Made by a program: the position numbers and the translations under genes. This document shows, in pieces, positions 35,401 through 61,503 of a stretch of DNA of 64,000 nucleotides. Source of the stretch: Owenia fusiformis. Taxonomy: Eukaryota; Annelida; Polychaeta; Sabellida; Oweniidae. Positions within the stretch are counted from its first letter, which is position 1. Each line of letters opens with the position of its first letter. The stretch lies in the NCBI GenBank assembly GCA_903813345.2, contig CAIIXF020000005.1:29701375-29765374 (forward strand). The letters are read 5' to 3'. Under the pieces are notes generated by a model that saw only the letters and a list, made by a program, of their open reading frames with translations, made no database searches and had not been told where the DNA came from.

Positions 35401-35419
35401 ATCTATAGCGTAAACTGTG

Positions 35420-37225
35420 ATGGAGAATTCTAGTCATCTGAACTCGAGTTGTCACTATGAGTATGCAAACACCGGAACCTGGCATTTTATACTTGTGACA
35501 ACCATATTAGGAATCATAAATGCTGTTGTCATCGGCGGAAATGTACTTATTGTCTCCGCTGTTTTCACGTGCCATAAACTCCGGAGTGTCACCAACTTAT
35601 TTATAGCGTCATTAGCATGTGCGGACTTATTTTTGGGCGTAACGGTGCTGCCCTTTTCTGTTGCCCAGGAAGTGCTGAGTTATTGGATATTCGGGTCATT
35701 TTGGTGTAGTATCTGGCTCGCTGTAGACGTTTGGATGTGTACCGCCTCTATACTGAATTTATGTGTTATCAGTTTGGATCGTTACCTCGCCATTACCAGG
35801 CCATTCAAATATCACGACCTTATGTCACAAGCACGTGGCAAGATTTTTATAGGACTCGTATGGATCATTTCTTTTGTGATATGTCTTCCACCATTGGTTG
35901 GATGGAATGAACAGAGATCATCTATAGTCAAAATAGACCCACCGACAATCCGTCACAATCTTTCTGAGTTTAATGTTGAGTTGCACCGGCTTGGCCTACA
36001 ACCAGAGAACGTAACATATGCCTTTGTTAGCGGAACAGATATGCCTTCTCCACGAACTATATCGTGTGACGATGGACCAAAACGTTGTGAATTGGTCTCG
36101 GAGCCAGGATACATAGTGTATTCAGCATCCGGGTCTTTTTATATTCCCTGCTGTATTTTAGTATTTTTCTATTGGAGAATATATCTAGCCGCCACTAGGG
36201 CAACGAAGGCGCTGAAACGAGGTACCATAACGACTAAGTCACATACGAGAAAAGGAGATTACTCACCAAATAGCGAGGTTTCTGTTACACTGCGCGTTCA
36301 CCGAGGAGGGAGCAAGCAATTTGCGGAATCTCCTTCTCTCCAATCTCGAGGCAGTGTGCGAAGCTACACAGGGAGCATTCGCAGCCAGCAAAACGGAAGT
36401 TCGTCGTGGGGGTCTGGACAAAATGGAAGTGTAAAAAGCACTAAAAGACATGCTGCATTAACGACTAGTCGATCGAAGAGGTCTCGATCTAGAGCCTCGT
36501 ATACACCCATTAATGCCTCTATCAATGAGCATGAACATGAATTGCCCGAGAAAGCAGCGACAGAAGTCACACCATCACCTAAAGCGAGGCATAGCATGCC
36601 GTGCCCAAGCCTTCCACGAAACTTTTCCATCACCAGTGATACAAATGACTTTGAATCTAAGACGATTACAAAAATGGAATCGGAGAAACCGTATATCACT
36701 ATCCCAGAAAGGGGCAAAAAACATCGAAAATGCCGCAGTCAACCAATCAATTCATACAGTATAGATGGTGAGAACATTTCCATCACTTCAAGACGAGGTA
36801 CAAAGGCGTCTTATTCACAAATATATGCTAAGGAAACCCATAAAGCACAAGTTAAAAATCAATTCAAACGATTTCATCGCGAGAAAAAGGCAGCAAAAAC
36901 CTTGGCAGTAATTGTTGGTGTTTTCATTTTGTGTTGGCTGCCATTTTTTACAGTGTATCTAATCGGTGCCTTCTGTAAGGACTGCACCCCACCCTTGGTA
37001 TTTTCCATATTTTTCTGGTTAGGGTATTGTAATTCCGCGTTAAACCCTTGTATATATGCTCTGTTTTCAAAAGATTATAGATATGCCTTTAAGAACCTCA
37101 TATGTTGCAACTTACAGAAGGTGAATCTCATTCTTAGAGGACCACGTGGCCTTATCTTTCGTAAGCCAACATTTTCAACTTCCCAATCCGCTTCCAAAGA
37201 AAGTAGTAGTACTTCCAGCTCCTGA
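35420..37225 (+). CDS. Octopamine receptor, OAMB / alpha1-adrenergic-like GPCR
   Basis: An intronless 601-residue class A receptor. The start is the ATG at 35420; the open frame extends one GTG codon further upstream, which is not a credible start. Seven membrane segments are evident. Key residues from the ATG: Asp103 in TM3 (AVDVWMC, amine anchor), DRY 120-122, Cys96 at the top of TM3, Ser235 and Ser239 in TM5 (YSASGSFYIP, catechol/phenol contacts), CWLPFF 505-510 in TM6, and NPCIY 542-546 in TM7. The TM6-7 stretch FFTVYLIGAFC..FFWLGYCNSALNP matches the arthropod OAMB class, and the REKKAAKT motif before TM6 is shared with alpha1-adrenergic receptors. This class usually couples to Gq/calcium. 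The third intracellular loop is long (~230 residues), Ser/Arg-rich and probably phosphorylated. The second extracellular loop is also long (~65 residues), with N-glycosylation sites. A mollusc-type octopamine or a noradrenaline receptor are the alternatives. Confidence 0.93.
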   Translation: MENSSHLNSSCHYEYANTGTWHFILVTTILGIINAVVIGGNVLIVSAVFTCHKLRSVTNLFIASLACADLFLGVTVLPFSVAQEVLSYWIFGSFWCSIWLAVDVWMCTASILNLCVISLDRYLAITRPFKYHDLMSQARGKIFIGLVWIISFVICLPPLVGWNEQRSSIVKIDPPTIRHNLSEFNVELHRLGLQPENVTYAFVSGTDMPSPRTISCDDGPKRCELVSEPGYIVYSASGSFYIPCCILVFFYWRIYLAATRATKALKRGTITTKSHTRKGDYSPNSEVSVTLRVHRGGSKQFAESPSLQSRGSVRSYTGSIRSQQNGSSSWGSGQNGSVKSTKRHAALTTSRSKRSRSRASYTPINASINEHEHELPEKAATEVTPSPKARHSMPCPSLPRNFSITSDTNDFESKTITKMESEKPYITIPERGKKHRKCRSQPINSYSIDGENISITSRRGTKASYSQIYAKETHKAQVKNQFKRFHREKKAAKTLAVIVGVFILCWLPFFTVYLIGAFCKDCTPPLVFSIFFWLGYCNSALNPCIYALFSKDYRYAFKNLICCNLQKVNLILRGPRGLIFRKPTFSTSQSASKESSSTSSS

Positions 37226-41342: not shown

Positions 41343-45435
<4,093 letters not shown>

Positions 45436-47355: not shown

Positions 47356-48058
47356 ACAGTTTCCTACGTTCAACATTCCTAATTATACGAGGAACCATTT
47401 TCACTCTCACTTGTTAAAAGTTGGTTACTTTACTGTATGGACTTGTGTTGAACGAAAACAGAGAATGTACGGGGACAGTTTCTTTTCGTTCAACATCCCA
47501 ACTATACAGGAACCATTTTCACTCTCACTTGTTAAAAGTTGGGTACTTTACTGTATGGACTTGTGTTGAACGAAAACAGAGAATGTAAGGGGAAAGTTTT
47601 TTTCGTTCAACATCCCAACTATACAGGAACCATTTTCACTCTCACTTGTTAAAAGTTGGGTACTCTACTGTATCGACTTATGAGCAACGAAAAAAGAGAA
47701 TGTAAGAGGACAGTTTCTTTCGTTCAACATCCCAATTATACAGGAACCATTTTCACTTCCACATGTTAAAAGTTTGGTACTTTACTGTATGGACTTATGA
47801 GCAACAAAAACAGAGAATGTAATGAGTTTCTTTCATTCAACATCCCAAATTATACAGGAACCATTTTCACTCTCCCATGTTAAAAGTTTGGTACTTTACT
47901 GTATGGACTTGTGTGAAACGAAAACAGAGAATGTAATTGGACAGTTTCTTTCGTTCTACATCCCAATTATACAGGAACCATTTTCACTCTCCCATGTTAA
48001 AAGTTGGGTATTTTACTGTTTTGACTTGTGTGCAACGAAAACAGAGAATGAGAATGGA
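47356..48058 (+). repeat. 117-base minisatellite, six units
   Basis: Six head-to-tail units begin near 47358, 47475, 47593, 47711, 47825 and 47941. Each reads ACAGTTTCTTTCGTTCAACA, TCCCAA.TATACAGGAACCA, TTTTCACTC..TGTTAAAAGT, GGGTACTTTACTGTATGGAC and ends ACGAAAACAGAGAATGTA. Divergence is modest. Open frames 47204-47569 and 47822-48088 run through the units and change frame between them, so they are not genes. Confidence 0.92.
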
Positions 48059-48509: not shown

Positions 48510-51500
48510 ATGTTATTTATTTGCATGCTGATTGTGGCAATCGCCTATGCCCAGGAAAATGCATTGGACAATGGATTTGAATATGATACAAAAACAGGTC
48601 TATACTATCGCATGTTAGAGGATGCAGAGAAGGGTATGTATTTTACATGCAATACAGCAGATTGGTATAACCTGAAATTTGATTGCTAATACGTTGTTAC
48701 AGCAAGTTTGATTGTTGATTTTGGTTTGATGTAGTTTTGTGCTTACCTTTGCGCTTTTCTCATAATGGTTAGTTGATGTGGTAAGACTATCAATCATTAC
48801 GTATGGACAATTGTCGTCTGAAAGTATTTTGAATGTTTTTAAGATGGTATGGTGTTGTTTCGATTCTCAAATACATCCATGATGTTTATCAGTGTAAGAA
48901 TAGACAAATTGTTTACATTTTCTTCAATAAACATTCATCATTATAAATACGCAGATTAGAGGCGATGCATGTTGAAAATTGAGTATAATACTTATCAGGA
49001 CCTATATTGAGTTGGGGACCAAAGGCAATCAAGTTAGTAAGTCATTATATCCCGGATCATCTTCAGGGTAATGACGACATTTTCCATATGGCTAATAATG
49101 TATTTGACAACACGCCACTTATTGTAAATTGAATATTAATAAAAGTATACAACCATAAACGGTTATTTGTGACTCACTTGATCCTTGATAATTTTGTTCT
49201 TTGATTGTTTCTGTATTTAGCTTATTTTCAAACAATGTGTATCATCATTATGTCCAGGAGGATAAACACAACCCTTTCTCTCCGAATCTCGCTAGACACA
49301 ACTATTGTTTATATTTAAGATAGGTGCACCAGTGGTTACTTTGAAACGAGTACTTCGAACTACGTCAATTATGACTGCTGTCATTACCTTCAATGTGACG
49401 TTAACACAGTGAACGCTACCCATGTGTATGTTAGAGCTTGTGAAGAACCAATGGTATGGAATATCGATAAATGTTCATGTGACTTCAGACGGCATGTACG
49501 AAGTTGTAGGAATACCCCATCTGAATGCTATGGTGATTATTCTCAATGTATTTTCGTACATTAAGTGTAATTCGGTAAACAGCGATTTTGTTATTCTTTT
49601 TATAGACAAACAGTCGTTATTCATTTAGATAAGTGATCAAATAATTGACCAATTATGCAGTTTAAATTATCCAAGGATATGTTTAAAGTGGCACAAAGAA
49701 TAATACTCGAGAGAGAAATGTGCACTTTTTGTATTTATGAATTTTACTATTATTTTACTACTATTTGAAAATACTAATAATCAGAACATAAATTTTAGAG
49801 ATCGTAGAACCTCCTCCAAGTTGCCCCGCTGTCGACGAACTACCTCCGAGTGGTAAGTAAAATTGTGCATTTTGGGCATGACTGCAAATACTCTGAAAAT
49901 ATGCAAATGAATACTAGATGATTCGGCGATATAATGTTTCAATATCACCTTTTTATATTATCATGCAAATCTTCCTACCCACGTTCTATAAATAGTAATA
50001 TTGATGTGTACTGTTTTAAGTCACATCAATGAATTTGTATTCTACTAAACCTTGAATTGAAATCAAAATCGTTTTGTTAAAGGCAGAATCAGATCTATGT
50101 GGCTGACAAAATTACTAGCAACATTACCAATCTGTTCCTTACAATCTCAAATACAATATCTCCCAAAATATTCATGATATAGTGTACATTGGTGAACTTA
50201 TGATGGATTCAAAGTGCAAAAAAATGGATGAAAATGTTTAGATTCTTCCAAATAATAAGAATGGTAACCATTCTAATAGAAAAATAATGCATTATTGTAA
50301 AAATCTTTAGTTTTCCTGAAATAAAGTGTGCACTTTTGGGAAAATATACATGAAAAAAAAAAAAGCCTGAAATACACGAAAATTGAAACAATTTTTGTTA
50401 GGCTGCTCGCTAGATCTGATTCTCTCTTTCATTATAATGTCGACTTTCTGTTGTTATTTTTTAATTAAAATGTTGCAGAGATGGCGTATTTTACATAACG
50501 GACGAAACATTAAAATCTTTCCGATTATCAACAGATGCAAAGAGGTCTTTTTCGGCTTGCTTTAACCTCAAATTGACCATTTTTTCAAAATCATCTACAA
50601 GTTCTCAGAGGTTGAAATCTGACTTAAGATTGAACTCATAATACTATGAGTAACTAGGTGGTGACATCTTGCCATGTTGATGCCTTGTCTGTTTTTTAAA
50701 TTAGAATGTTGCAGGGATGGAGTATTTTACATTCCGGATGAAACATTAAAATCTTTTCGATTATCAAGAGATGCGAAGTCAGCGGAGCCAATAGAATGTC
50801 CATTTGAACAGACGTTTGACCTCGAAGAGTGTGCGTGTACTGGGGATGTACCATGTACGTATTTCGGAAAATATTACCGGAATGGGTTAGTAACAGTCGT
50901 TTTAGCATTAATCAACGAAATTCATTTACTAAATGAATGAGTTAGATCTAGTGTTATTGGTCATAGTCCCAACGTAGCGCTGTGATATTCAAAATATGCT
51001 TCCTTATTTACGTTTCTGGTGTTTTTTAATAGTATGGCGCGGCGATTGCGTTTATTTCAACTTTGATGGGAACTACAAGGATAATCTTCAGGCAACATGG
51101 ATGTTTCCTGGAAGTGTAGAATTCAATCCGATCGATCCTCCAATCGCTGATTTCCAAAGGGACGAGAGTTTGGGTCCACTCGTTCTCGCTGGAAGATTTG
51201 TAAACGAGGTAGGTACAGTAACATAATTGCACCATTAGAGTAAATTTGAATTTCACCCTGATTTCTGTAATTTTCAACATATACGAGACCCCTGGTGTCT
51301 GTTTATCTTCATAATTTCAAAACCACACAAGATTTACAAATCACACTTTAGGAAAATTGTGAAATTGATCTCTGCATACTGCCAAATTTTCATGGAAATC
51401 CGTCCATTGAAAAAAAGTTATATCGAAATAAAAAAAATGTGGACGTTTTTGCCCTACCCTGTAGTATGACTTCTAAAAAGGATCAGATAAAAGTGTATCG

Positions 51501-54500
51501 TAAATCTGGAAAGTTTGAGTTTACAAAAAACGCTATATATATTATTGTCATCAATCATTTATTCATAGACACCAGCCGCAATTCCATACTTCTCTAAAGT
51601 ACTACTTGGATATGATGTTACGATTATGGCATGGTTCTATACGAGGTATGTATCAGGAAACCTATGGGACAATGGAGACAGTACTGTGAGAGGAGAGGGG
51701 TCAACACTTTTCTTCACGCTCGATTTAGATGAGGATCGTAAAAGAAAACGCCAAGCTGATAATGAAGTTGAAGTATCAGACGAAGCCTATAGGGTTTCGA
51801 AGGCGCTTAGATACCGACTTAGGGGGAAGGCGTGTGCTTTCGGTGGTTGTGCTTCATATGATGTAAGCTTTACATCGAACTAATACCACAGGCTTGTATC
51901 GAAAGATTTGTCCCCTGTGACGGAGCATGTTATTTTTCATAAAAACACTAAGAAAACACAATTTCTATTTAACTCATAAGTTTCGTTATACCAAAGAAAA
52001 TCACTTACTCCATGCAATGGATACATCATTTGCGGGTAACTTTCACTTCTGTTGAAGTCCCATAGCTGTAGGAAGAAAAGCTAAGTTTAAAAAGAAATGG
52101 TACATTTTAGAGTGTGATACTCTGGCGCCGTTTACATTTTACTCGTAGCGTCATTGGACTTCAAACAGAAGCGAAGGTTACCCTCAAATGATATATCCAT
52201 TGCATGGAGTAAGTGATCTTCTTTGATATAACGAAACATATGAGTTAAAAAAGAAACTCTGAAGTACTCTTAGTGTTTTTATGAAAAATAGCATGCTCCG
52301 TCACAGTGGACAAATTTTTCGATACCAGCCTGTGAATACATGACATACAGGGTGATCATTAAGTTCTGGGAATTGGTCTGCCATTTCAAGATTTCTCAAC
52401 CATTTGAGTTGAAATTTTTAGCAGGTGTACATTGTATAATTCTGAATTGACAAGCAATGTTTCATATACATATCACATGTACAATTTATTTTATTGCAAT
52501 TACAAAAAAAGTAAAAGTTGTTCGCGGGTCAGGATATTTTGACTGATGTTAATTTGAGAATTTCCTGCCAAAGCATATTCATCTTGCCTAGATGGTTGCT
52601 TCAAACTACTTGTACTAGAGACAGAACAGTACTCTTGAAGTCATTTATTTACAAGTATTCTTCATTGCTGAGAGGATCATTTCATTTATGATTGTTTCCA
52701 TTAGCCTGGACGCACATGCGTTGTTGACAAACTTAGTCCATAAAGATGTGTTCCAGTCCTCCCTTTGGTATCCCTTGAAGTTTTGCTCAAGTCGTTGAAA
52801 TCAGTCCCTTATCGGAATCAAACTTATGACCTCTCATATAATGCTTTAGCACCTAAAATGTAGTGTAGCCTAGTGGTGCTTCATCTGGTGAATATTGTCT
52901 GGTGAATATGGGGCAGTAATAACTTGTGTGGACCCTAATTCTTCAAGAGTAGTATGGGCAGCTCCAGTAATGGGAAGGAGCATAGACATAATGGAAGATA
53001 ACTCCCCGCTATTTTTAGTCATGATTGTGACTTTGAGATGCTGATGAAAGATACGAAAATAGAGCAAAGTACACTCTTATATAACAATACAGATGTTGCT
53101 TTAGAAACTAAAGTTAGAAGTATTTGAAAATATAGAAAATCACAGAAATATGTCCACCAAATAGGTATTTATTAACCATACCTTTGGATCAAGCAAAATT
53201 TGAATTCATTTTTATTTTACTTGACCCGCTACACCATTTGTCATGTTGCTATAGTAACAATAATTGTCCATTGTGACATCAGATGACAGTGAGACTGTTT
53301 AATCCAAACCCAAATTACATTCCCCATTTACCTTGAAAATGTCAAGTAAATTGGTTGAAAAATAATGAAATGACAGATAAATTCCCAGAACTTAGTGATC
53401 ACCCTGTATATAGCATTTCTTTATAGTGTAAAGTTAATCATAAATTAAGAGAGGAAATGTTTTGTAAAGTAAAAGGTATATATGATCTATTTGAGTCTTG
53501 TGATAATGAAAAGAAAACAATGTACTTATTGAATTCTAAATCACTCTGTAAATATGTTTCAAATTTTTTGCTTTTGTCTTTGGAGGCTAAAAATAGATTA
53601 AAGTAAGTGTTAATTCTGACTTATCTGCTTATAATATGATTGTAATTGTGTCTCATAAGCCTTTGGAGGCTGGCCGTATAATTACGGGTGACACTGTAAT
53701 AAATAAATAAATAAATAAAATATAAAATAGTATCCATCACGTGTGAAAGAAAGTATGGTCAGTGAGCGATATTATAAAGTCTTCTTCTGGGCGTTTATAA
53801 CTGTCTCAGAATGAGTATAACCTATTACAATATACGATGTAGAAATGTGTCAATTCTACAAAATAAAAAGGAGTGCCTCTCGTAAATAGTGCATGAATGT
53901 TTTCAGATTTTCACGATAAATGACAAGAGCCGCGAAATCTACCTAGGAACTAGAACAATTGAAACACTATTTGTTTTGTTTTAGTCAGCCAAAGTTATTG
54001 AAATTGGGGATCGACAGAGAGGTCAAAATGGACAAAGTGATGAGCCTGAATCCCAACCAATGTGGGTGCACCTTGCCATGAAGATGACGGGTTTTAAGGT
54101 GTACCTCTATGTAAATGGAGCATTAGTGGGTTCAGGAGACGCGGGAATAGGTAACGTTTAAAATACAATTAAAACTAATAAAAAGACCAAAGATTAATTA
54201 TTTTGTCTAGTGGTAAAATGATGAACATTAGTACACTTGATGTTCTAGTTCCAAGCAATATTCGTCGCAATTTCTGTATAATCAACACAACACGTATTTA
54301 ACCTATCTTCCTTTGTAATAGTACATTATTGATTAATTCATCGTAGATCCTATTTACGGGACCGAGAGACCCCTTTATGTTGGCCGACGATACACTGGGC
54401 TTATGGATGATGTGAGTTTCTTAGATTATAATTTGCTATTTTTGTCATCATCTCAAAAATGTACGTACAATGCAACATCCTTTTACAAGGTACTACAAGG

Positions 54501-54915
54501 TACCAGGTACATTTATTTACAATAGATCGAATACTAAATATGTCAAAGAAGGGTATATATCATAGACGTCCCTCTATAAGTCTAATAAACTTTATTAGTT
54601 AACCTAGGTTGGAAAACTAGTTATATAACTATATTTAAAATTTCATCATTTTCAGTTTTTATGTTGTTTGAAAAGTTTTCAAAAATGCATCGATGCATTG
54701 ACACCAAAACAACGAATAATTTCGTTAGTGAAGCGACTGTCTGATGATATTAGTTTTTTGTTTTTCAAAGCTTTATGAGAGTAGCGCTAAAAATATAAAT
54801 GATATATTCCTATGTTTTACAGTTGATCGTGTGTCGGTTTGCTTGGACAGATGACGAGGTCCTTGAATTTTACCAAAACAGAATTATTCCTCCAACGCCA
54901 ACGTATCACCTTTAG
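48510..54915 (+). CDS. Secreted chitin-binding and LamG protein, Pif/LamG3-like, paralogue 1
   Basis: Nine exons: 48510-48633, 49320-49532, 49799-49852, 50705-50854, 51033-51208, 51569-51862, 53985-54150, 54347-54411 and 54823-54915 (TAG). All junctions are in frame, giving 444 residues. The signal peptide MLFICMLIVAIAYA precedes QENALDNGF. Exon 2 encodes a Cys-rich chitin-binding-2-like domain (C..GYFE..DCCHYLQC..CEEPMVWN..CSCDF). Exon 4 encodes a second one (CCRDGVFYIPDETLKSF..CPFEQTFDLEECAC). Exons 5-9 encode a laminin-G/concanavalin-type fold (FNFDGNY, GYDVTIMAWFYTRYVSG, WVHLAMKMTGFKVYLYVNG, YTGLMDDLIVCRFAWTDDEV). RKRKR at residues 296-300 is a furin-type site inside the LamG part. The domain set matches Pif/LamG3-type matrix proteins of lophotrochozoans, lacking VWA. 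An acceptor-like site upstream of the ATG (TTTGTAG, 48478-48484) suggests a 5' untranslated exon. The function is inferred as an extracellular chitin matrix protein. Confidence 0.9.
50457..50693 (+). pseudogene. Relic duplicate of exon 4 fused to a satellite-type repeat
   Basis: 50457-50541 repeats the acceptor region and first ~72 coding bases of the functional exon 4 (50705). It encodes CCRDGVFYITDETLKSFRLS, then TDAK. The acceptor AG has become AA (TTAATTAAAATG against TTAAATTAGAATG), so it should not be spliced in. Similarity stops at GATGCAAAG. From 50542 the sequence is a core unit and right end of the 13203-14648 repeat family (AGGTCTTTTT..AATCATCTACAAGTTCTCAG..GGTGGTGACATCTTGCCATG, TTGATGCCTTGT), which runs up to the functional exon's intron. 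Confidence 0.85.
51887..52334. mobile_element. Foldback MITE in intron 6 of paralogue 1
   Basis: The arms of about 180 bases begin CACAGGCTTGTATCGAAAGA and end with the complement TTTCGATACCAGCCTGTG. The inner parts TTACTCCATGCAATGGATA.ATCATTTG and their mirror at 52180-52215 also pair. The flanks AATAC (51882-51886 and 52335-52339) form a 5-base target duplication. Confidence 0.85.
52348..53406 (-). mobile_element. CAGGGTG-type element with decayed mariner-like transposase
   Basis: The ends CAGGGTGATCATTAAGTTCT-GGGAATT and AATTCCCAGAACTTAGTGAT-CACCCTG lie between TA dinucleotides (52346-52347 and 53407-53408). On the - strand, 53067-52870 reads ITGAAHTTLEELGSTQVITA, then PYSPD. This aligns with the 'DNA.AH...lEELgi..l..pPYSPDL' segment of Tc1/mariner DDE transposases. 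Asp is replaced (ITGAAH), and stops follow, so it is inactive. A second piece (about 52790-52670 on -) reads FKGYQREDWNTSLWTKFVNN. It lies in intron 6 of paralogue 1. Confidence 0.75.
53409..53725 (+). mobile_element. 3' end of a LINE-type retrotransposon
   Basis: One frame (53459-53608) reads YDLFESCDNEKKTMYLLNSK, then SLCKYVSNFLLLS..EAKNRLK and a stop. This is the usual look of the end of a LINE reverse-transcriptase ORF. It is followed by CTTTGGAGGCTGGCCGTATAATTACGGG and a tail of AATA repeats (53698-53720), typical of CR1/L2/Jockey-like 3' ends. 5'-truncated. It directly abuts the right TA of the mariner-like element. Confidence 0.65.
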
Positions 54916-54982
54916 AAGACTTCTCAAATATAACCAATTTGCATTGACAATAACTGGAACACTGCTGTCTGAAAACGATTGA

Positions 54983-54988
54983 AATAAA
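54983..54988 (+). terminator. Likely poly(A) signal of paralogue 1
   Basis: AATAAA lies 68 bases after the TAG stop. A second AATAAA is at 55077-55082. Confidence 0.65.
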
Positions 54989-55452
54989 ATTGTACATTAA
55001 GTGAAAGATAAATACTTACCCATGTTTTGTAATGTTTATGTTCTTGTGAAATATATACCAATTCGTTTAACATCCAAATAAAACTGTAAAACTGTATAAC
55101 TGATTATCCCCATTACATTGCGTATTTCAAATGATGTTACATGTAGAATTTGAGTGATTAAGTAACATCGCATCGGACATATTGGAAGAGTTATGGTCCA
55201 TTCATGTCACCACGAACAAAAGTATTGGGTTACATTATACTGTGTCATGACACTGACGCCATCGAACCTATTCTGAATACAAGGTATGTGTACCATACAG
55301 CTGAATATAAGCACGTACTTGGTTAATCGTTGAAATTTGGATTATCGTATATTCAGGTCCTCTTTATATCATGTGAATCATCTTAAGTTTCATATTATGC
55401 AATAAAATCGCATATATTAAACAATGGATGGCTCATTTCAGAGGTTACAAAG

Positions 55453-58400
55453 ATGATATGTCTATGTGTATTATCTTTACTGGTAGTCGTTAACACACAG
55501 GAAAATGCTTTGGACCATGGGTTTAAATTTGATGAGAAAAAAGGATTATATTATCGCCTGTTAGAGGATAGCGAAAAAAGTAAGTTATATCAAATGGTAT
55601 AAAAAGAGGAGGTACATTAACACTCAAAGTGCCACAGGCTTAATCTTCTACAAAGCACATTGCGGATGACATTTCTAATGTTTCCTTATGTGAAGGTTTA
55701 CTTAATATAGAACAATGCTATTAAAAAGCGTTGATATCTGCAAGTGATACGTATGTACAGAGACATAAGTATGCAAGCACATGTTCTATTTTTATGGTAA
55801 TAAACAAACGATATTCAAAATATGTAAAAAGAATAAAAACATCAAGAGTACAAGCATAAAGAGACAAATCGTCAGCAATCATCAACTAACCTCTTATCCC
55901 CCTGTCTAATGCTCATCCTGTATACTGAGTGATTAAAAAAAGTGCATAATTTGTTTTTTCTCATTTAAAATAAACACTTTTTTATAAATGAAATGAAATA
56001 TTTCCAAAATAGCGTATGAGGTATAAAAAACAATTTATTTTCAGTCAATTGTGAGAACGGATATTTTGAGACAAATACGCTTAACTATGTTGGCTACGAC
56101 TGTTGCCATTACCTCCAATGTGACGTGAGTACGGTGAACGCCACCCATGTTTACGTCAGAGCCTGTGAAGAGCCTATGGTGTGGAATGCAGAAGGATTTT
56201 CCTGTGACTTCAGACGAAATGTTAGAAGCTGCAGGAACACTCCATCGGAATGTTATGGTAAAATCAGGGCCTGAAAAGTAATATCGGGAAATAAGTTGGA
56301 TTATAGTTGGACTATTTTGAATAGAAAAGTACGATTTCTTCATTGTTGATACACTCACAATATGAACATATAAGATATAAAGAAAATTATAGGGTAGAAT
56401 GTATCAAAGGATGGTTTAGTCATAGTAAAAATTAGTAACCATACGGTAAGTTATTTTGTGTCACATTATATTATAATGCAACACTTGTATATAATTATGG
56501 ATTATTTGTGTTTTTCTCTTTTTAGAAACAATAGAGCCTCCATCGTGTCCACCCGCAGAGGATCTACCTGCAAGTCGTAAGTAGATTAAATACCATAGTG
56601 TTGCAGTTGTCAAATTAATAGAGTCGAAAACTAAATTCTTTCATTACGCGAAAACCGTTGAAATATCTACCTGATTCGCTGGAATAGTCATTAGTCACAT
56701 TATCTCAGAGCAAACAATTAGCATCTACTATAATATTTATTTTTCTATCCGATATACAACTGATATTGATATCTTTCCCCGGACAATGTGTTATCTCATG
56801 ATCCGTTGACATCGTCAACAATTTGATTTACCACAAGAGAGTAACCAACATTCCTTAATTAAAAGTTGACATTTCTTGAATTTTATAGCAAAAACACTAT
56901 GACACAATAACATCGAGGCAAAATCATGGTGTGGAAATAAAAGGCATACAAATGGCCATTAAAATGAAATTCTTGTTCATAAAAGTATCAACTTTATTAC
57001 ATTGGACGCAAATACAAAGTATAGAATAAATAAAAATAACGTCTTCCCAGAGATTACAATACGGATCAGTAAGTCAACAAATCTAACTGTTAAATAAACA
57101 AACTTAGCCCATGTCTGCAATTGTTCGTCTGCTGGTCAAAACTCGGTATCCTCTTCGGATAATCAATTTCTGTGACTACCGATGTCTTAATAATTCATAA
57201 AGACGACGTTGTCTTTAAATAAGGATCTTTAATCTACAAACTGTAAATAAATAGCGTGAACCCGGGATCGTAGACAACAACATTGATACCTTGCTGTCCT
57301 CTGTTAAATCACGAAACCCGTTTCCCTTAATTTTTTACTAAGAGACTTATACATGCATAAGTTATCTATCAAATTATTTTTCTTTAAATATTAAATGTCG
57401 TCTAAGTTTGTTTTAATGATTAGTTTTCATCTAGATTCATTAATCATCACGATATTTATATATACATATCATGTAATAGACCTATCATATCACGTCCGTA
57501 GTTACAAAGTCAACTACATATTAATGCAATAGAATAAGACTCAATAATTAAAAAAATAAACCTCAGTATTCGGGCCTAAAAAACACAGATAAGTGTATCA
57601 ATACCAACGGGTAAGCTCAAATAACCTTCCAAATAAGTGTATCAATAATCAAGGATTGCGAGTACTAAGGACCGGGTAAGATGGTGGTAACATTGGTATT
57701 GCTAGTTATTAAACACGATTTTGTCTTGTGTAAAATATTTAATATTATGCTTACTTTTTATATCAGAATGCTGCAAAAATGGTTTGATCTACATACCCGA
57801 TGTCACATTGAAATCATTTCGGATATCAACTGATCACAAAGCTGCAGATTTAATCGAGTGTCCACATGAACAAGTATTTGATATCGAAAACTGTGAGTGT
57901 CAAGGGGACATACCGAGTAAGTATTAATTGAACAGTTTAGAATTCCAGATCTAGTACTGCTTGACTCCGTCCCATTCGTTCTCTCCAGTAGTGTTTATCA
58001 AGTTATTCATTTAGTCACAAGGGGTTGATGAACGATTCTTACTACGCAACATACTTTGATTACCCTTATGACTGTTATAGTTGTGTGGTAACGTACCTGT
58101 ACAATCACAAATAGAAATGATGTAATGTTACATAATATGAGCTCACACCCAAATGATTGTGGATGTCCAGGTTCTTCTGAATGTGGATGTGCAGATTTTT
58201 CACTTAGCTATTCCGATCACTTGATGACTGTCGACTGAGGTTCTATCTAAAAATGGTAGTGCAGTCACACCTATTTATAAATATTATTTTTTAAGTATGG
58301 CGCGGCGATTGTGTTCATTTTAACTTTGATGGAAACTACAAGGATAATCTTCAAGCGACGTGGATGTTTCCTGGAAGCGTTGAATTCAATCAGATTGATC

Positions 58401-61400
58401 CTCCTATAGCAGATTTCCAAAGGGAAGTTAGTATTGGCCCATTGCTTCTAGCGGGGCGATTCATAAATGAGGTAACAACCTTCGTCAATACTTTTAGACG
58501 CAATGTATTTTTTGATTGGACAGCCTCTGGACCTTTAGGAAAAAGTACAAGTTTGTATATGTTTAAGAAGTCTACTACATACCTTTAATATCATTGGGTC
58601 CGGAAAATATGTACCATATAATTGTCAAATTATCTGGTAATAAATCATGTCTTCATATCATATATCATTGGATTGGTAATAACAAATCCATTATCTTATA
58701 CTTTTTATTATCGGAAATAAATGTGGTAAATTTAGCCAAAATACCATTTTGATTGACTTCAGACACCAGCTGCGGTTCCATATTTTTCGAATGTTCTCCT
58801 TGGATATGATGTAACCATCATGGCATGGTTCTATACGAGGTATGTCTCAGGAAACCTCTGGGACAATGGTGAGGCTAATGTACAGAGGTCAACACTTTTC
58901 TTCACTCTCGATTTAGACGAGGACGAAAACGGAAATTCGAGGGGAAAGCGTCAAAGTGACGATGAATACATACCAGATAATGTCTATAAGGGTGCCAGGG
59001 CTCTTGGCTTTCCATTAAGGGGTAAAGCTTGTGTACCCGGGGGTAGCTGTGTAACATATAATGTAAGTACACCATATCCTTGAAACAAAATATGAAATAT
59101 AACAGAAATAAATATAGAAGAATCTATGGAAATGATTCTGAAATGATGTGCTTATTCGAGAAATGTGAAAAAGATACTAAAATCGTTCTTCAAATCATTC
59201 TTCAAAACACATTTTTATACAATGCGAAAGCATTCCTTCGTTATAGATAGGTTCAAGGTTGTTTGAATTCCAAAATTTGGTTTTGCTCATGATTTTAGTT
59301 CTCATTAACGGCACCATTGTGCTGCATTCATTAACTATCATCACCTCTACTTTTCTTAGCACTTTTAACTTTCCTTAATAGCAACGATACATTTCTTGAT
59401 TATTAGTCAGTAGAGATTATCAATCGAGGAGCACGTCAACGAGGTGACTCAGACCAGGGCCAGAATGAAGAGACTGAGGTTGCCATGCCAATGTGGGTAC
59501 ATCTTGCTATGAAGATGACAGGGTTTAAGGTTTACCTCTACGTAAATGGTGATCTGGTTGGTGCTGGAAATGCTGGAATAGGTACATATTAACCATTTAA
59601 TTTTTTGTTTTAAAGGCCCATTTTCACGCATGTTCAGATTTGGATGATGACTTTTTAATCAGTTCACTAGTGATCTGCTCGATTACGCTGGTTACCGAAA
59701 CGGTTCGTTTCGGTAACAAAATGTCGGAACGTCGAAGGTACGGTTTTTCTTTTTTCCTTATTTCACACATTGTAGGCAGAATCCCCACGACATTTTTTCT
59801 CACAAACGTGTATCAGTATCATATGTTTAAGAAAATGTACATGTTTGCGAAAAAAATAGCTCAGAAGACAACAGAATCGTCGAATTAATGCCTCACTTAA
59901 GTTACATGAACGGTATGGGTTAGATCTTAACTGTTTTTCGAAATAAAAATCTCGCGGGAATTGTGCCTACGACGTATGAAATAAGGAACAAAAGAGATCG
60001 TACCTTCGATGTTCCGACATTTTATTACCGAAACGAGCCGTTTCGGTAACCAGCGTAATCGAGTGGATCACCAGTGCAGATAATGAAAACACAGAATGAA
60101 ATCCTGTGCGAAGGGCTGATGTAAAAAAAGTCAGTCAAACCCAGTGGATATCGAACCCAAGACCCCCCCCCCCCCCCCGTTTACAAGGCGATTGCATTTT
60201 TAAGAGACATTCGGAAAACCTACGTCATATGAGACTTTTCAATTACCAGATTTTGTTCGATATTGTAGATCCTATTTTTGGAACTGAAAGACCTCTTTAT
60301 GTTGGCAGAAGGTACACCGGTCTAATGGACGACGTAAGTGCAGACATTGAATCATTCTGAAACATTATTATCCGTCATAAACAAAGGATTGGCTCCCAAA
60401 GTGCAACATCTATATTCTGTCCCATACATTTTGGTCTTATTTCCCAACTAAAAATTCCAGAACTCACAAGAAATAATCTGATATTGGTTCGAATCTTTAC
60501 AGTAGTATTTCTTCTGAAAATCGTTTATTTGGGTTATCTGAAGAAAATGTTTGAGTCAAGGGGCGTATTAATTTTGCCTTCATTTTTGTGAATTTCAATT
60601 CCTATCGGCAGACAGAGGGGTTAGTGTCACAATTGACCAATTATATCAAAAAATAGATGTTTGGCCCCTATTGAGTTTTGTGTCAGAATTTAGCTTAAAC
60701 ATTGCTTTTGAACTTCAGATATGCCATTAGGGCCACAAACATCCATAACTCGAGATAAAAAGTCAGGCGTTTGCCCATTTGCCCATTGACTAGTATTGTG
60801 ACTTGAATTAGGACTGTTAAATACCGCCATGGTCATAAACATAACGCATATCATAAAAACCGAGAGAATACTAAAAAAAAAATACTAAAACTTAATATCA
60901 GATGGCAGGACATTGTACTGGGCAATATAAAAATCCATGAAAACAAGATCTCAATGTTCAGAGACTTATTATTGACTATTGTTGCTTACACTGTTTATTC
61001 AAACTGGATAGCTTTCTCGGAAAAGGCCGATATCTTTATAAATCTGAACTTCAAGTCAAAAATAGCTTGCAACATTGTATTTTTCGCTAATGTATATGAA
61101 CATTCAAATTGTAATCATGCTTCATTCTTCGCTAGACATTTCATACTATTTTTAGATCAATTTGTTTCATAATTGAACTGTATTATTCATGTATTTGTTC
61201 ATATGTTAAAAGTTAAATTGAATAAAATTTTAAAAAAATAAATAAAATAAAAAAAATAAAATAAATAAATAAAAACCGAGAGACATGGAGTATACCTTTG
61301 CATTGCATTGCAATCTGAAGTTAAACGTTCCTCACATTATCAATTAGAGCTTTGTGTATTCCATTATATACAGGGAAAATATTCAAGTGTATTTTGTCGT

Positions 61401-61503
61401 ATTTTTGTAGCTGATTGTTTGCCGGTTTGCATGGACGGATGAAGAAGTACGTGCATTCTACACAGACCGAATCATTCCCCCAACACCAACGTACCACATT
61501 TGA
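55453..61503 (+). CDS. Secreted chitin-binding and LamG protein, Pif/LamG3-like, paralogue 2
   Basis: Nine exons: 55453-55579, 56045-56257, 56526-56576, 57767-57916, 58296-58471, 58763-59062, 59407-59581, 60269-60333 and 61411-61503 (TGA). The product has 449 residues. Exon number, all intron phases and five exon lengths (213, 150, 176, 65, 93) equal those of paralogue 1, so this is a tandem duplicate. It has a signal peptide (MICLCVLSLLVVVNT), then the Cys-rich domain C..GYFETN..DCCHYLQC..CEEPMVWN and the second Cys-rich domain CCKNGLIYIPDVTLKSFRIS..CPHEQVFDIENCEC. The LamG part holds FNFDGNYKDNL, MAWFYTRYVSG and WVHLAMKMTGFKVYLYVNG. RGKR at 299-302 sits where paralogue 1 has RKRKR. The GARQRGDSDQ stretch in exon 7 is variable. 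An acceptor (CATTTCAG) 12 bases before the ATG suggests a 5' untranslated exon. No canonical AATAAA was seen close to the stop. Role inferred as for paralogue 1. Confidence 0.9.
59663..60078. mobile_element. Long foldback MITE in intron 7 of paralogue 2
   Basis: The arms of at least 125 bases pair. CACTAGTGATCTGCTCGATT-ACGCTGGTTACCGAAACGG at the left pairs with its mirror ending GATCACCAGTG. Deeper, CCTTATTTCACACATTGTAGGCAGAATTCCC-type sequence also pairs. The perfect sub-palindrome TTACCGAAACG-GTT-CGTTTCGGTAA is in each arm. No convincing target duplication was found. Confidence 0.85.
60163..60178 (+). repeat. Poly-C run in intron 7 of paralogue 2
   Basis: A run of 16 consecutive C. Such runs are prone to length error in assemblies. 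Confidence 0.9.
60868..61268 (+). mobile_element. Retroposon-like insertion with A-rich tail and 15-base target duplication
   Basis: ATAAAAACCGAGAGA occurs at 60853-60867 and again, exactly, at 61269-61283. The 401 bases between end in AATAAAATTTTAAAAAAATA and AAATAAAT repeats. A direct duplication of this length with an A-rich 3' tail indicates target-primed reverse transcription. The source is unknown; an AT-rich open frame (60954-61172) has no recognised domain. It lies in intron 8 of paralogue 2. Confidence 0.8.

What the first reader, a model, noticed from the sequence alone, without database searches (positions are those of the whole stretch)
48510..61503. Tandem pair of Pif/LamG3-like matrix proteins with conserved exon structure
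Two adjacent 9-exon genes encode signal peptide, two Cys-rich chitin-binding-like domains and a LamG fold, with identical intron phases. The first Cys-rich domain has a doubled Cys (DCCHYLQC) and CSCDF/FSCDF spacing that differs from ordinary peritrophin-A domains. If the animal is a shelled lophotrochozoan, these are candidate biomineral or cuticle matrix genes without the VWA domain of Pif.
Basis: partly seen in the sequence, partly recalled or inferred. Interest (0 to 1): 0.7.

Follow-up and report, generated by a model that had tools for sequence, protein, structure and literature searches.

The report
Tandem pair of LamG3-type matrix genes
Two neighbouring animal genes, born by an old duplication, encode probably secreted proteins with two chitin-binding-like modules and one lectin-like (LamG) module, an arrangement already known from Pif-related shell-matrix proteins, so this is a sound but fairly ordinary find.

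Summary
Two head-to-tail 9-exon genes (48510-54915; 55453-61503, + strand) encode 444 and 449 aa proteins with all eight intron phases identical. They agree at 323 of 440 aligned residues; differences by codon position are 86/58/207 and dN/dS is about 0.09, so both copies are old and constrained. Laminin_G_3 passes Pfam's cut-off in both. CBM_14 does not (best 13.6 and 18.1 bits against 22.1). The first Cys-rich exon still keeps the canonical six-Cys spacing, with extra cysteines, and its profile finds squid chitin binding beak protein 3 (E 4e-4). The second domain's main exon, modelled alone, resembles CBM14 folds (weak E). No VWA was found. The LamG domain has a charged insert with a dibasic site, as in Pif. 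This is the published 'LamG3' architecture (CB + LG, no VWA). A role in chitinous or mineralised matrix is likely but untested. The species is unknown; the neighbouring amylase suggests a mollusc or relative. Sequence kinship with Pif itself could not be shown.

The parts
48510..54915 (+). Gene 1 (g1): 9 exons 48510-48633, 49320-49532, 49799-49852, 50705-50854, 51033-51208, 51569-51862, 53985-54150, 54347-54411, 54823-54915; 444 aa
   Evidence: joined frame without internal stop, GT-AG introns
55453..61503 (+). Gene 2 (g2): 9 exons 55453-55579, 56045-56257, 56526-56576, 57767-57916, 58296-58471, 58763-59062, 59407-59581, 60269-60333, 61411-61503; 449 aa
   Evidence: joined frame, same 8 intron phases as g1
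49320..49532 (+). g1 exon 2: whole first Cys-rich domain, a phase 1-1 exon, 9 Cys (DCCHYLQC, CSCDF)
   Evidence: CBM_14 13.6 bits, below cut-off 22.1; canonical six-Cys spacing
56045..56257 (+). g2 exon 2: first Cys-rich domain, 8 Cys (DCCHYLQC, FSCDF)
   Evidence: CBM_14 18.1 bits, E 0.0029, below cut-off; profile of the two exons finds 7bwe chitin binding beak protein 3, E 4.1e-4
49799..50854 (+). g1 exons 3-4: second Cys-rich domain, 6 Cys, spacing 10-0-28-10-1
   Evidence: no Pfam family; exon-4 model pLDDT 84 resembles CBM14 folds
56526..57916 (+). g2 exons 3-4: second Cys-rich domain, same six Cys
   Evidence: no CBM_14 match, only a sub-threshold hit to Baculo_VP91_N, E 0.11; exon 4 64% identical to g1 exon 4; spacing
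51033..54915 (+). g1 exons 5-9: Laminin_G_3 domain with a charged insert
   Evidence: 41.4 bits, E 2.1e-10 for the isolated domain
58296..61503 (+). g2 exons 5-9: Laminin_G_3 domain with a charged insert
   Evidence: 37.9 bits in the whole protein
51737..51751 (+). g1 dibasic run RKRKR in the acidic insert of LamG
   Evidence: sequence; residues 296-300
58940..58951 (+). g2 RGKR at the matching place, of the form R-x-K-R (recalled as the furin consensus; PfuPif is cut at RMKR)
   Evidence: sequence; dibasic KR at residues 301-302
50457..50542 (+). Truncated second copy of exon 4 inside g1 intron 3; its 3' part is replaced by a dispersed repeat and its acceptor AG is changed
   Evidence: 88% identical to 50693-50778; the following bases match the 13.4-14.6 kb repeats; acceptor change read

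Best explanation
g1 and g2 are tandem duplicates of one LamG3-type gene. Each makes a secreted extracellular-matrix protein. Two CBM14-like modules anchor it to chitin or a similar polysaccharide, and the C-terminal LamG (concanavalin A-like) module binds a partner glycan or protein, so that the protein cross-links or decorates a chitinous layer such as periostracum, shell framework, cuticle or tube. Shown: two constrained gene copies, the domain order, and a LamG match above cut-off. Supported but not proved: CBM14-like nature of the two Cys-rich modules (sequence for the first, model for the second). Inferred: secretion (leader judged by eye), chitin binding, cutting at the dibasic site in the LamG insert, and the tissue.
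For: Gene structure and constraint. Laminin_G_3 above cut-off in both. The first domain's profile finds chitin binding beak protein 3 as its only PDB hit at E up to 10 (4.1e-4; 0.011 with the single g1 protein). The exon-4 model has CBM14-type chitin-binding structures as its first seven Foldseek hits (that Der p 23, the Aplysia protein and Avr4 are of this type is recalled). No VWA in the joined proteins or in the 11 of 25 upstream + strand ORFs scanned. Published LamG3 is CB + LG without VWA in lophotrochozoans and amphioxus; published Pif/BMSP proteins also carry sub-threshold CBM_14-like domains and an insert between LG halves.
Against: CBM_14 is below Pfam's cut-off in all four Cys-rich domains. 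The model of domain 1 failed (pLDDT 44). The domain-2 model lacks exon 3 and its first Cys; best Foldseek E 0.05, 0 of 131 matches at 0.001 or lower, and unrelated ribosomal chains begin at rank 8. Profile of exon 4 against PDB sequences: no hit. The two LG fragments of PfuPif printed in PMC11291548 align no better than shuffled sequence. Species, expression and proteome presence are unknown. Many LamG3/Pif genes are not highly expressed in mantle, and lamG3 is kept in the shell-less octopus, where the authors think of functions unrelated to shell.
Confidence: 0.7

Rival explanations
1. They are secreted lectin-like proteins of gut, mucus or blood (peritrophic, immune or digestive), not structural matrix proteins; the chitin-binding-like modules would recognise microbial or dietary chitin.
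For: Same modules; an alpha-amylase gene lies directly upstream (41343-45435); many LamG3/Pif genes are not highly expressed in mantle.
Against: Neighbouring genes in animal genomes rarely share function (general knowledge). Several described relatives with this architecture are found in shell or eggcase matrix or discussed for the gladius.
Confidence: 0.22
2. Convergent architecture: the Cys-rich modules are not CBM14 homologues and the LamG domain comes from another lineage, so kinship with LamG3/Pif is only apparent.
For: Sub-threshold CBM_14 scores, second domain without canonical spacing, no excess over shuffles against the PfuPif LG fragments.
Against: Domain 1 matches a chitin-binding protein at E 4.1e-4 and the domain-2 exon model resembles the CBM14 fold. 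The Pif test used only 91 published residues, so it had little power.
Confidence: 0.1
3. One or both copies are pseudogenes or mis-joined exons.
For: No transcript seen; g1 intron 3 holds a broken copy of exon 4.
Against: Both frames are complete, all splice sites are GT-AG, and dN/dS is about 0.09.
Confidence: 0.04

Closest known systems
LamG3 proteins (BMSP/LamG3/Pif group; e.g. Crassostrea nippona Pif-e/Pif-f, Nautilus and Argonauta LamG3)
   Same: Chitin-binding module(s) and LG without VWA, as defined in PMC10543319; in oysters, LamG3 and Pif genes lie in a cluster that arose by tandem duplication
   Different: Here both chitin-binding modules are below Pfam's cut-off, the copies lie in the same orientation (the oyster duplications are described as reverse tandem), and no sequence comparison with LamG3 proteins was possible. 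[quoted passage not shown]
Pif of Pinctada fucata (Pif97/Pif80)
   Same: CB, CB-like, then an LG domain split by a charged insert; a dibasic site
   Different: No VWA here; the insert is short (about 100 residues by estimate) and has no long Asp/Lys/Arg-rich repeat; no significant alignment to the two printed LG fragments; cleavage is reported for PfuPif and only a possibility here
Squid chitin binding beak protein 3 (PDB 7bwe; the squid source is recalled)
   Same: First Cys-rich domain, aligned from the DC..Y..C segment to CDFR.NV.SC
   Different: A 64-residue chain without LamG; the window domains have extra cysteines and a longer loop

Membership tests
LamG3 (CB + LG, no VWA; PMC10543319) | LG (PF13385) domain, E below 1e-5 | tested here: met
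   9.8e-10 and 2.5e-9
LamG3 (CB + LG, no VWA; PMC10543319) | CB (PF01607) domain, E below 1e-5 | tested here: not met
   Best 0.074 (g1) and 0.0029 (g2) for isolated domain 1, none for domain 2; in the whole proteins 0.23 for g2 and none listed for g1. In the scheme of PMC11291548 such a domain would class as CBM_14-like L1.
LamG3 (CB + LG, no VWA; PMC10543319) | No VWA domain | tested here: met
   None in either joined protein at E up to 10; none in 11 of the 25 + strand ORFs of 35 aa or more between 45432 and 48510; shorter exons and the - strand were not scanned
LamG3 (CB + LG, no VWA; PMC10543319) | Falls in the LamG3/Pif clade | not testable with these tools
   No animal protein database is held
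Pif | VWA domain | tested here: not met
   As above
Pif | Conserved Pif LG sequences | tested here: inconclusive
   Best z 1.2-1.3 against shuffles (g2, first fragment); 261 and 254 of 2000 shuffles score as high
CBM_14 / peritrophin-A (first domain) | Six Cys with spacing 13-20, 5-6, 9-19, 10-14, 4-14 (pattern recalled) | tested here: met
   Fits in g1 and g2; 601 and 233 of 20000 shuffles also fit
CBM_14 / peritrophin-A (first domain) | Pfam gathering score | tested here: not met
   13.6 and 18.1 against 22.1 bits
CBM_14 / peritrophin-A (second domain) | Canonical six-Cys spacing | tested here: not met
   Spacing 10-0-28-10-1 in both genes
CBM_14 / peritrophin-A (second domain) | CBM14 fold | tested here: inconclusive
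   Exon-4 model (without exon 3) pLDDT 84; first seven Foldseek hits of CBM14 type, best E 0.05

The most novel reading that the evidence does not exclude
These are minimal, VWA-less Pifs: a convertase cuts the conserved dibasic site in the acidic insert of LamG, giving a chitin-anchoring N-terminal half and a C-terminal half that stay joined by a disulfide between C186 and C418 (g1 numbering), as Pif97 and Pif80 are thought to stay together in one complex. The unpaired extra cysteine of g1 (CSCDF; 19 Cys in the presumed mature protein against 18 in g2) would add cross-linking between molecules, a functional split between the two copies.
Probability: 0.15. Interest if true: 0.5.

Novelty: new member of a known kind. 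Interest (0 to 1): 0.27.

Why it matters
LamG3/Pif genes occur across lophotrochozoans and in amphioxus. A complete, constrained tandem pair with a clean exon-module layout (each Cys-rich domain in phase 1-1 exons) is useful material for the question of whether chitin-matrix genes were recruited into shells from an older, non-mineral role. In itself it adds members to a known group and does not change the picture.

Tried and rejected
Pif-specific sequence kinship: the two PfuPif LG fragments printed in PMC11291548 were aligned, apart and joined, to both LamG domains with 2000 shuffles on each side; no excess (z from -0.2 to 1.3). hhalign against the first fragment alone gave probability 1.4%. 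The match IPYFSKVLLGYDVTI / IPRFSGVPYGKSVFI lies in the expected part of the domain but is no evidence by itself.

Domain-1 structure: AlphaFold model too poor (pLDDT 44), so no fold search was run on it. NCBIfam: nothing at E up to 1. Relatives in viral contigs: 31 stretches matched a pattern, none confirmed. Isolated g1 LamG domain against PDB sequences: one hit, an unrelated protein at E 0.98. Whole g1 protein against PDB: besides the beak protein, two weak unrelated hits. Exon-4 profile against PDB: none. Rfam at gathering threshold: nothing in the window. Ten further ORFs (two of them amylase exons): no family above cut-off. VIA-align library not available. A paper search for the beak protein structure listed nothing.

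Sub-threshold hit kept in view: g2 exons 3-4 against Baculo_VP91_N, 12.6 bits against 24. I recall that protein family as having a peritrophin-like region; not tested.

Species: no genome is held for the window. The neighbouring amylase has an intron in its signal-peptide region and its other introns before the amylase core's long last exon lie near the 5' end. PMC3096672 calls a signal-peptide-region intron mollusc-specific in its sample (orthology unsure) and 5'-concentrated introns a trait of a number of molluscan and annelid genes. The search listing counts no mention of brachiopods in that paper, so this points to a mollusc or relative but proves nothing.

Full report
The feature is real. 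Reading the region and joining the exons gives two complete genes on the + strand, g1 at 48510-54915 (444 aa) and g2 at 55453-61503 (449 aa). Each has nine exons, GT-AG introns, and the same eight intron phases (1,1,1,1,0,0,1,0). The proteins agree at 323 of 440 aligned residues. Differences by codon position are 86/58/207; NG86 gives dN 0.17 and dS 1.88, close to saturation. Seven of nine exons align by blastn (76-83%); exon 3 and the g1 exon 4 do not reach E 1e-3, though they align as protein. Trimmed introns give no hit. This is an old tandem duplication with both copies under purifying selection.

Domain content. Laminin_G_3 is above its cut-off in both (39.2 and 37.9 bits against 27.6). 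The g1 match covers only residues 349-427 (profile 66-150). Exon 5 starts the domain near residue 181, so about 165 residues stand before the matched part, against 65 profile positions: by this estimate roughly 100 residues are surplus. They include a charged stretch with a dibasic run (RKRKR in g1, RGKR in g2). The first Cys-rich domain sits in one phase 1-1 exon. CBM_14 scores 13.6 (g1) and 18.1 bits (g2) on the isolated exon, under the 22.1 cut-off; in the whole proteins it is listed only for g2, at 12.1 bits. The two-row profile finds chitin binding beak protein 3 as its only PDB hit at E up to 10, E 4.1e-4 (0.011 with g1 alone). Its cysteines fit the canonical six-Cys spacing with two extra (g2) or three extra (g1); 233 and 601 of 20000 shuffles also fit (pattern recalled).

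The second domain (exons 3-4) has six Cys in a non-canonical spacing and no CBM_14 match; g2 gives one sub-threshold hit to Baculo_VP91_N, and the exon-4 profile finds nothing in PDB sequences. AlphaFold on the exon-4 pair, without exon 3, gave pLDDT 84. Of 131 Foldseek matches (50 shown) the first seven chains are Der p 23, chitotriosidase (three chains of two entries), an Aplysia protein, Blo t 12 and Avr4, which are of CBM14 type as far as I recall; tachycitin is at rank 14 and Der f 23 at rank 19, with ribosomal chains between. The best E is 0.05 and none is 0.001 or lower, so this is suggestive, not proof. The domain-1 model failed (pLDDT 44).

No VWA domain was found in the joined proteins or in the upstream interval. 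There I scanned 11 of the 25 + strand ORFs of 35 aa or more that start between 45432 and 48510 (listed; scanned). Of the 14 left out, 11 lie in a 117-base tandem repeat. Shorter exons, the - strand and the stretch after 61503 were not scanned.

Comparison with print. In PMC10543319 (passages, sections 9 and 10 read) LamG3 proteins are defined as CB plus LG without VWA, occur in lophotrochozoans and amphioxus, and lie with Pif genes in a cluster in oysters built by reverse tandem duplications. PMC9635652 and PMC13076209 (passages) report LamG3 in cephalopods: in Nautilus shell and Argonauta hians eggcase matrix, in the genome of a shell-less octopus, and, as a gene, in most decapodiforms. PMC11291548 (section 7 and passages) describes CBM_14-like domains below threshold in Pif/BMSP proteins, N- and C-terminal LG pieces in 34 of 50 proteins with inserts of 138-1438 residues, and cleavage of PfuPif at RMKR. 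PMC7747718 (passages) and PMC6907788 (passages) give the usual two CB domains of Pif-like proteins. The window genes match this anatomy except for VWA, and their LamG insert is shorter. Specific sequence kinship to Pif was tested with the two printed LG fragments and not found.

Mechanism. Most likely the proteins are secreted and anchored to chitin through the two CBM14-like modules, with LamG binding another matrix component. Cutting at the dibasic site in the LamG insert is possible by analogy with Pif. Secretion, chitin binding, cleavage and tissue are inferred. The published cautions, that many such genes are not highly expressed in mantle and that no Pif proteins were found in brachiopod shell or tubeworm tube proteomes, apply here.

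Taxon. The window is from an animal, judging by its gene content. The adjacent alpha-amylase gene (Alpha-amylase_C 48 bits on its long exon, the catalytic profile only 13.3 bits there) has an intron in the signal-peptide region and further introns near the 5' end, a pattern PMC3096672 (Results part 1 and passages) associates with molluscs, or molluscs and annelids, in a sample of 55 taxa.

Verdict: a new pair of members of a known kind, well supported as genes, moderately supported as LamG3-type matrix proteins, untested in function. The odds given for the explanations are not exclusive of one another.

Noticed in passing
window 50457-50542: A second, truncated copy of exon 4 (22 of 25 residues identical to g1 exon 4) in g1 intron 3, cut off by a dispersed repeat that also occurs in the 13.4-14.6 kb repeats; its acceptor AG is lost.
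   Followed up: yes
window 51887-52334: Palindromic element in g1 intron 6 (arms of 67 and 86 nt, 94% and 92% complementary), MITE-like.
   Followed up: partly
window 52345-53409: About 1.06 kb element with 74-nt inverted termini (85% complementary) in g1 intron 6, looks like a decayed DNA transposon.
   Followed up: partly
window 59635-60106: Palindromic element with 120-nt arms (79% complementary) in g2 intron 7, MITE-like.
   Followed up: partly
window 41343-45435: Alpha-amylase gene with an intron in the signal-peptide region and a C-terminal extension on three further exons after the Alpha-amylase_C domain; the ORFs of the last two of these exons had no Pfam match, the third was not scanned.
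   Followed up: partly
window 35414-37222: Uninterrupted rhodopsin-type GPCR reading frame (7tm_1, 218 bits), amine-receptor-like by eye.
   Followed up: partly
window 47356-48050: Tandem array of a 117-base unit, about six copies, just upstream of g1.
   Followed up: no
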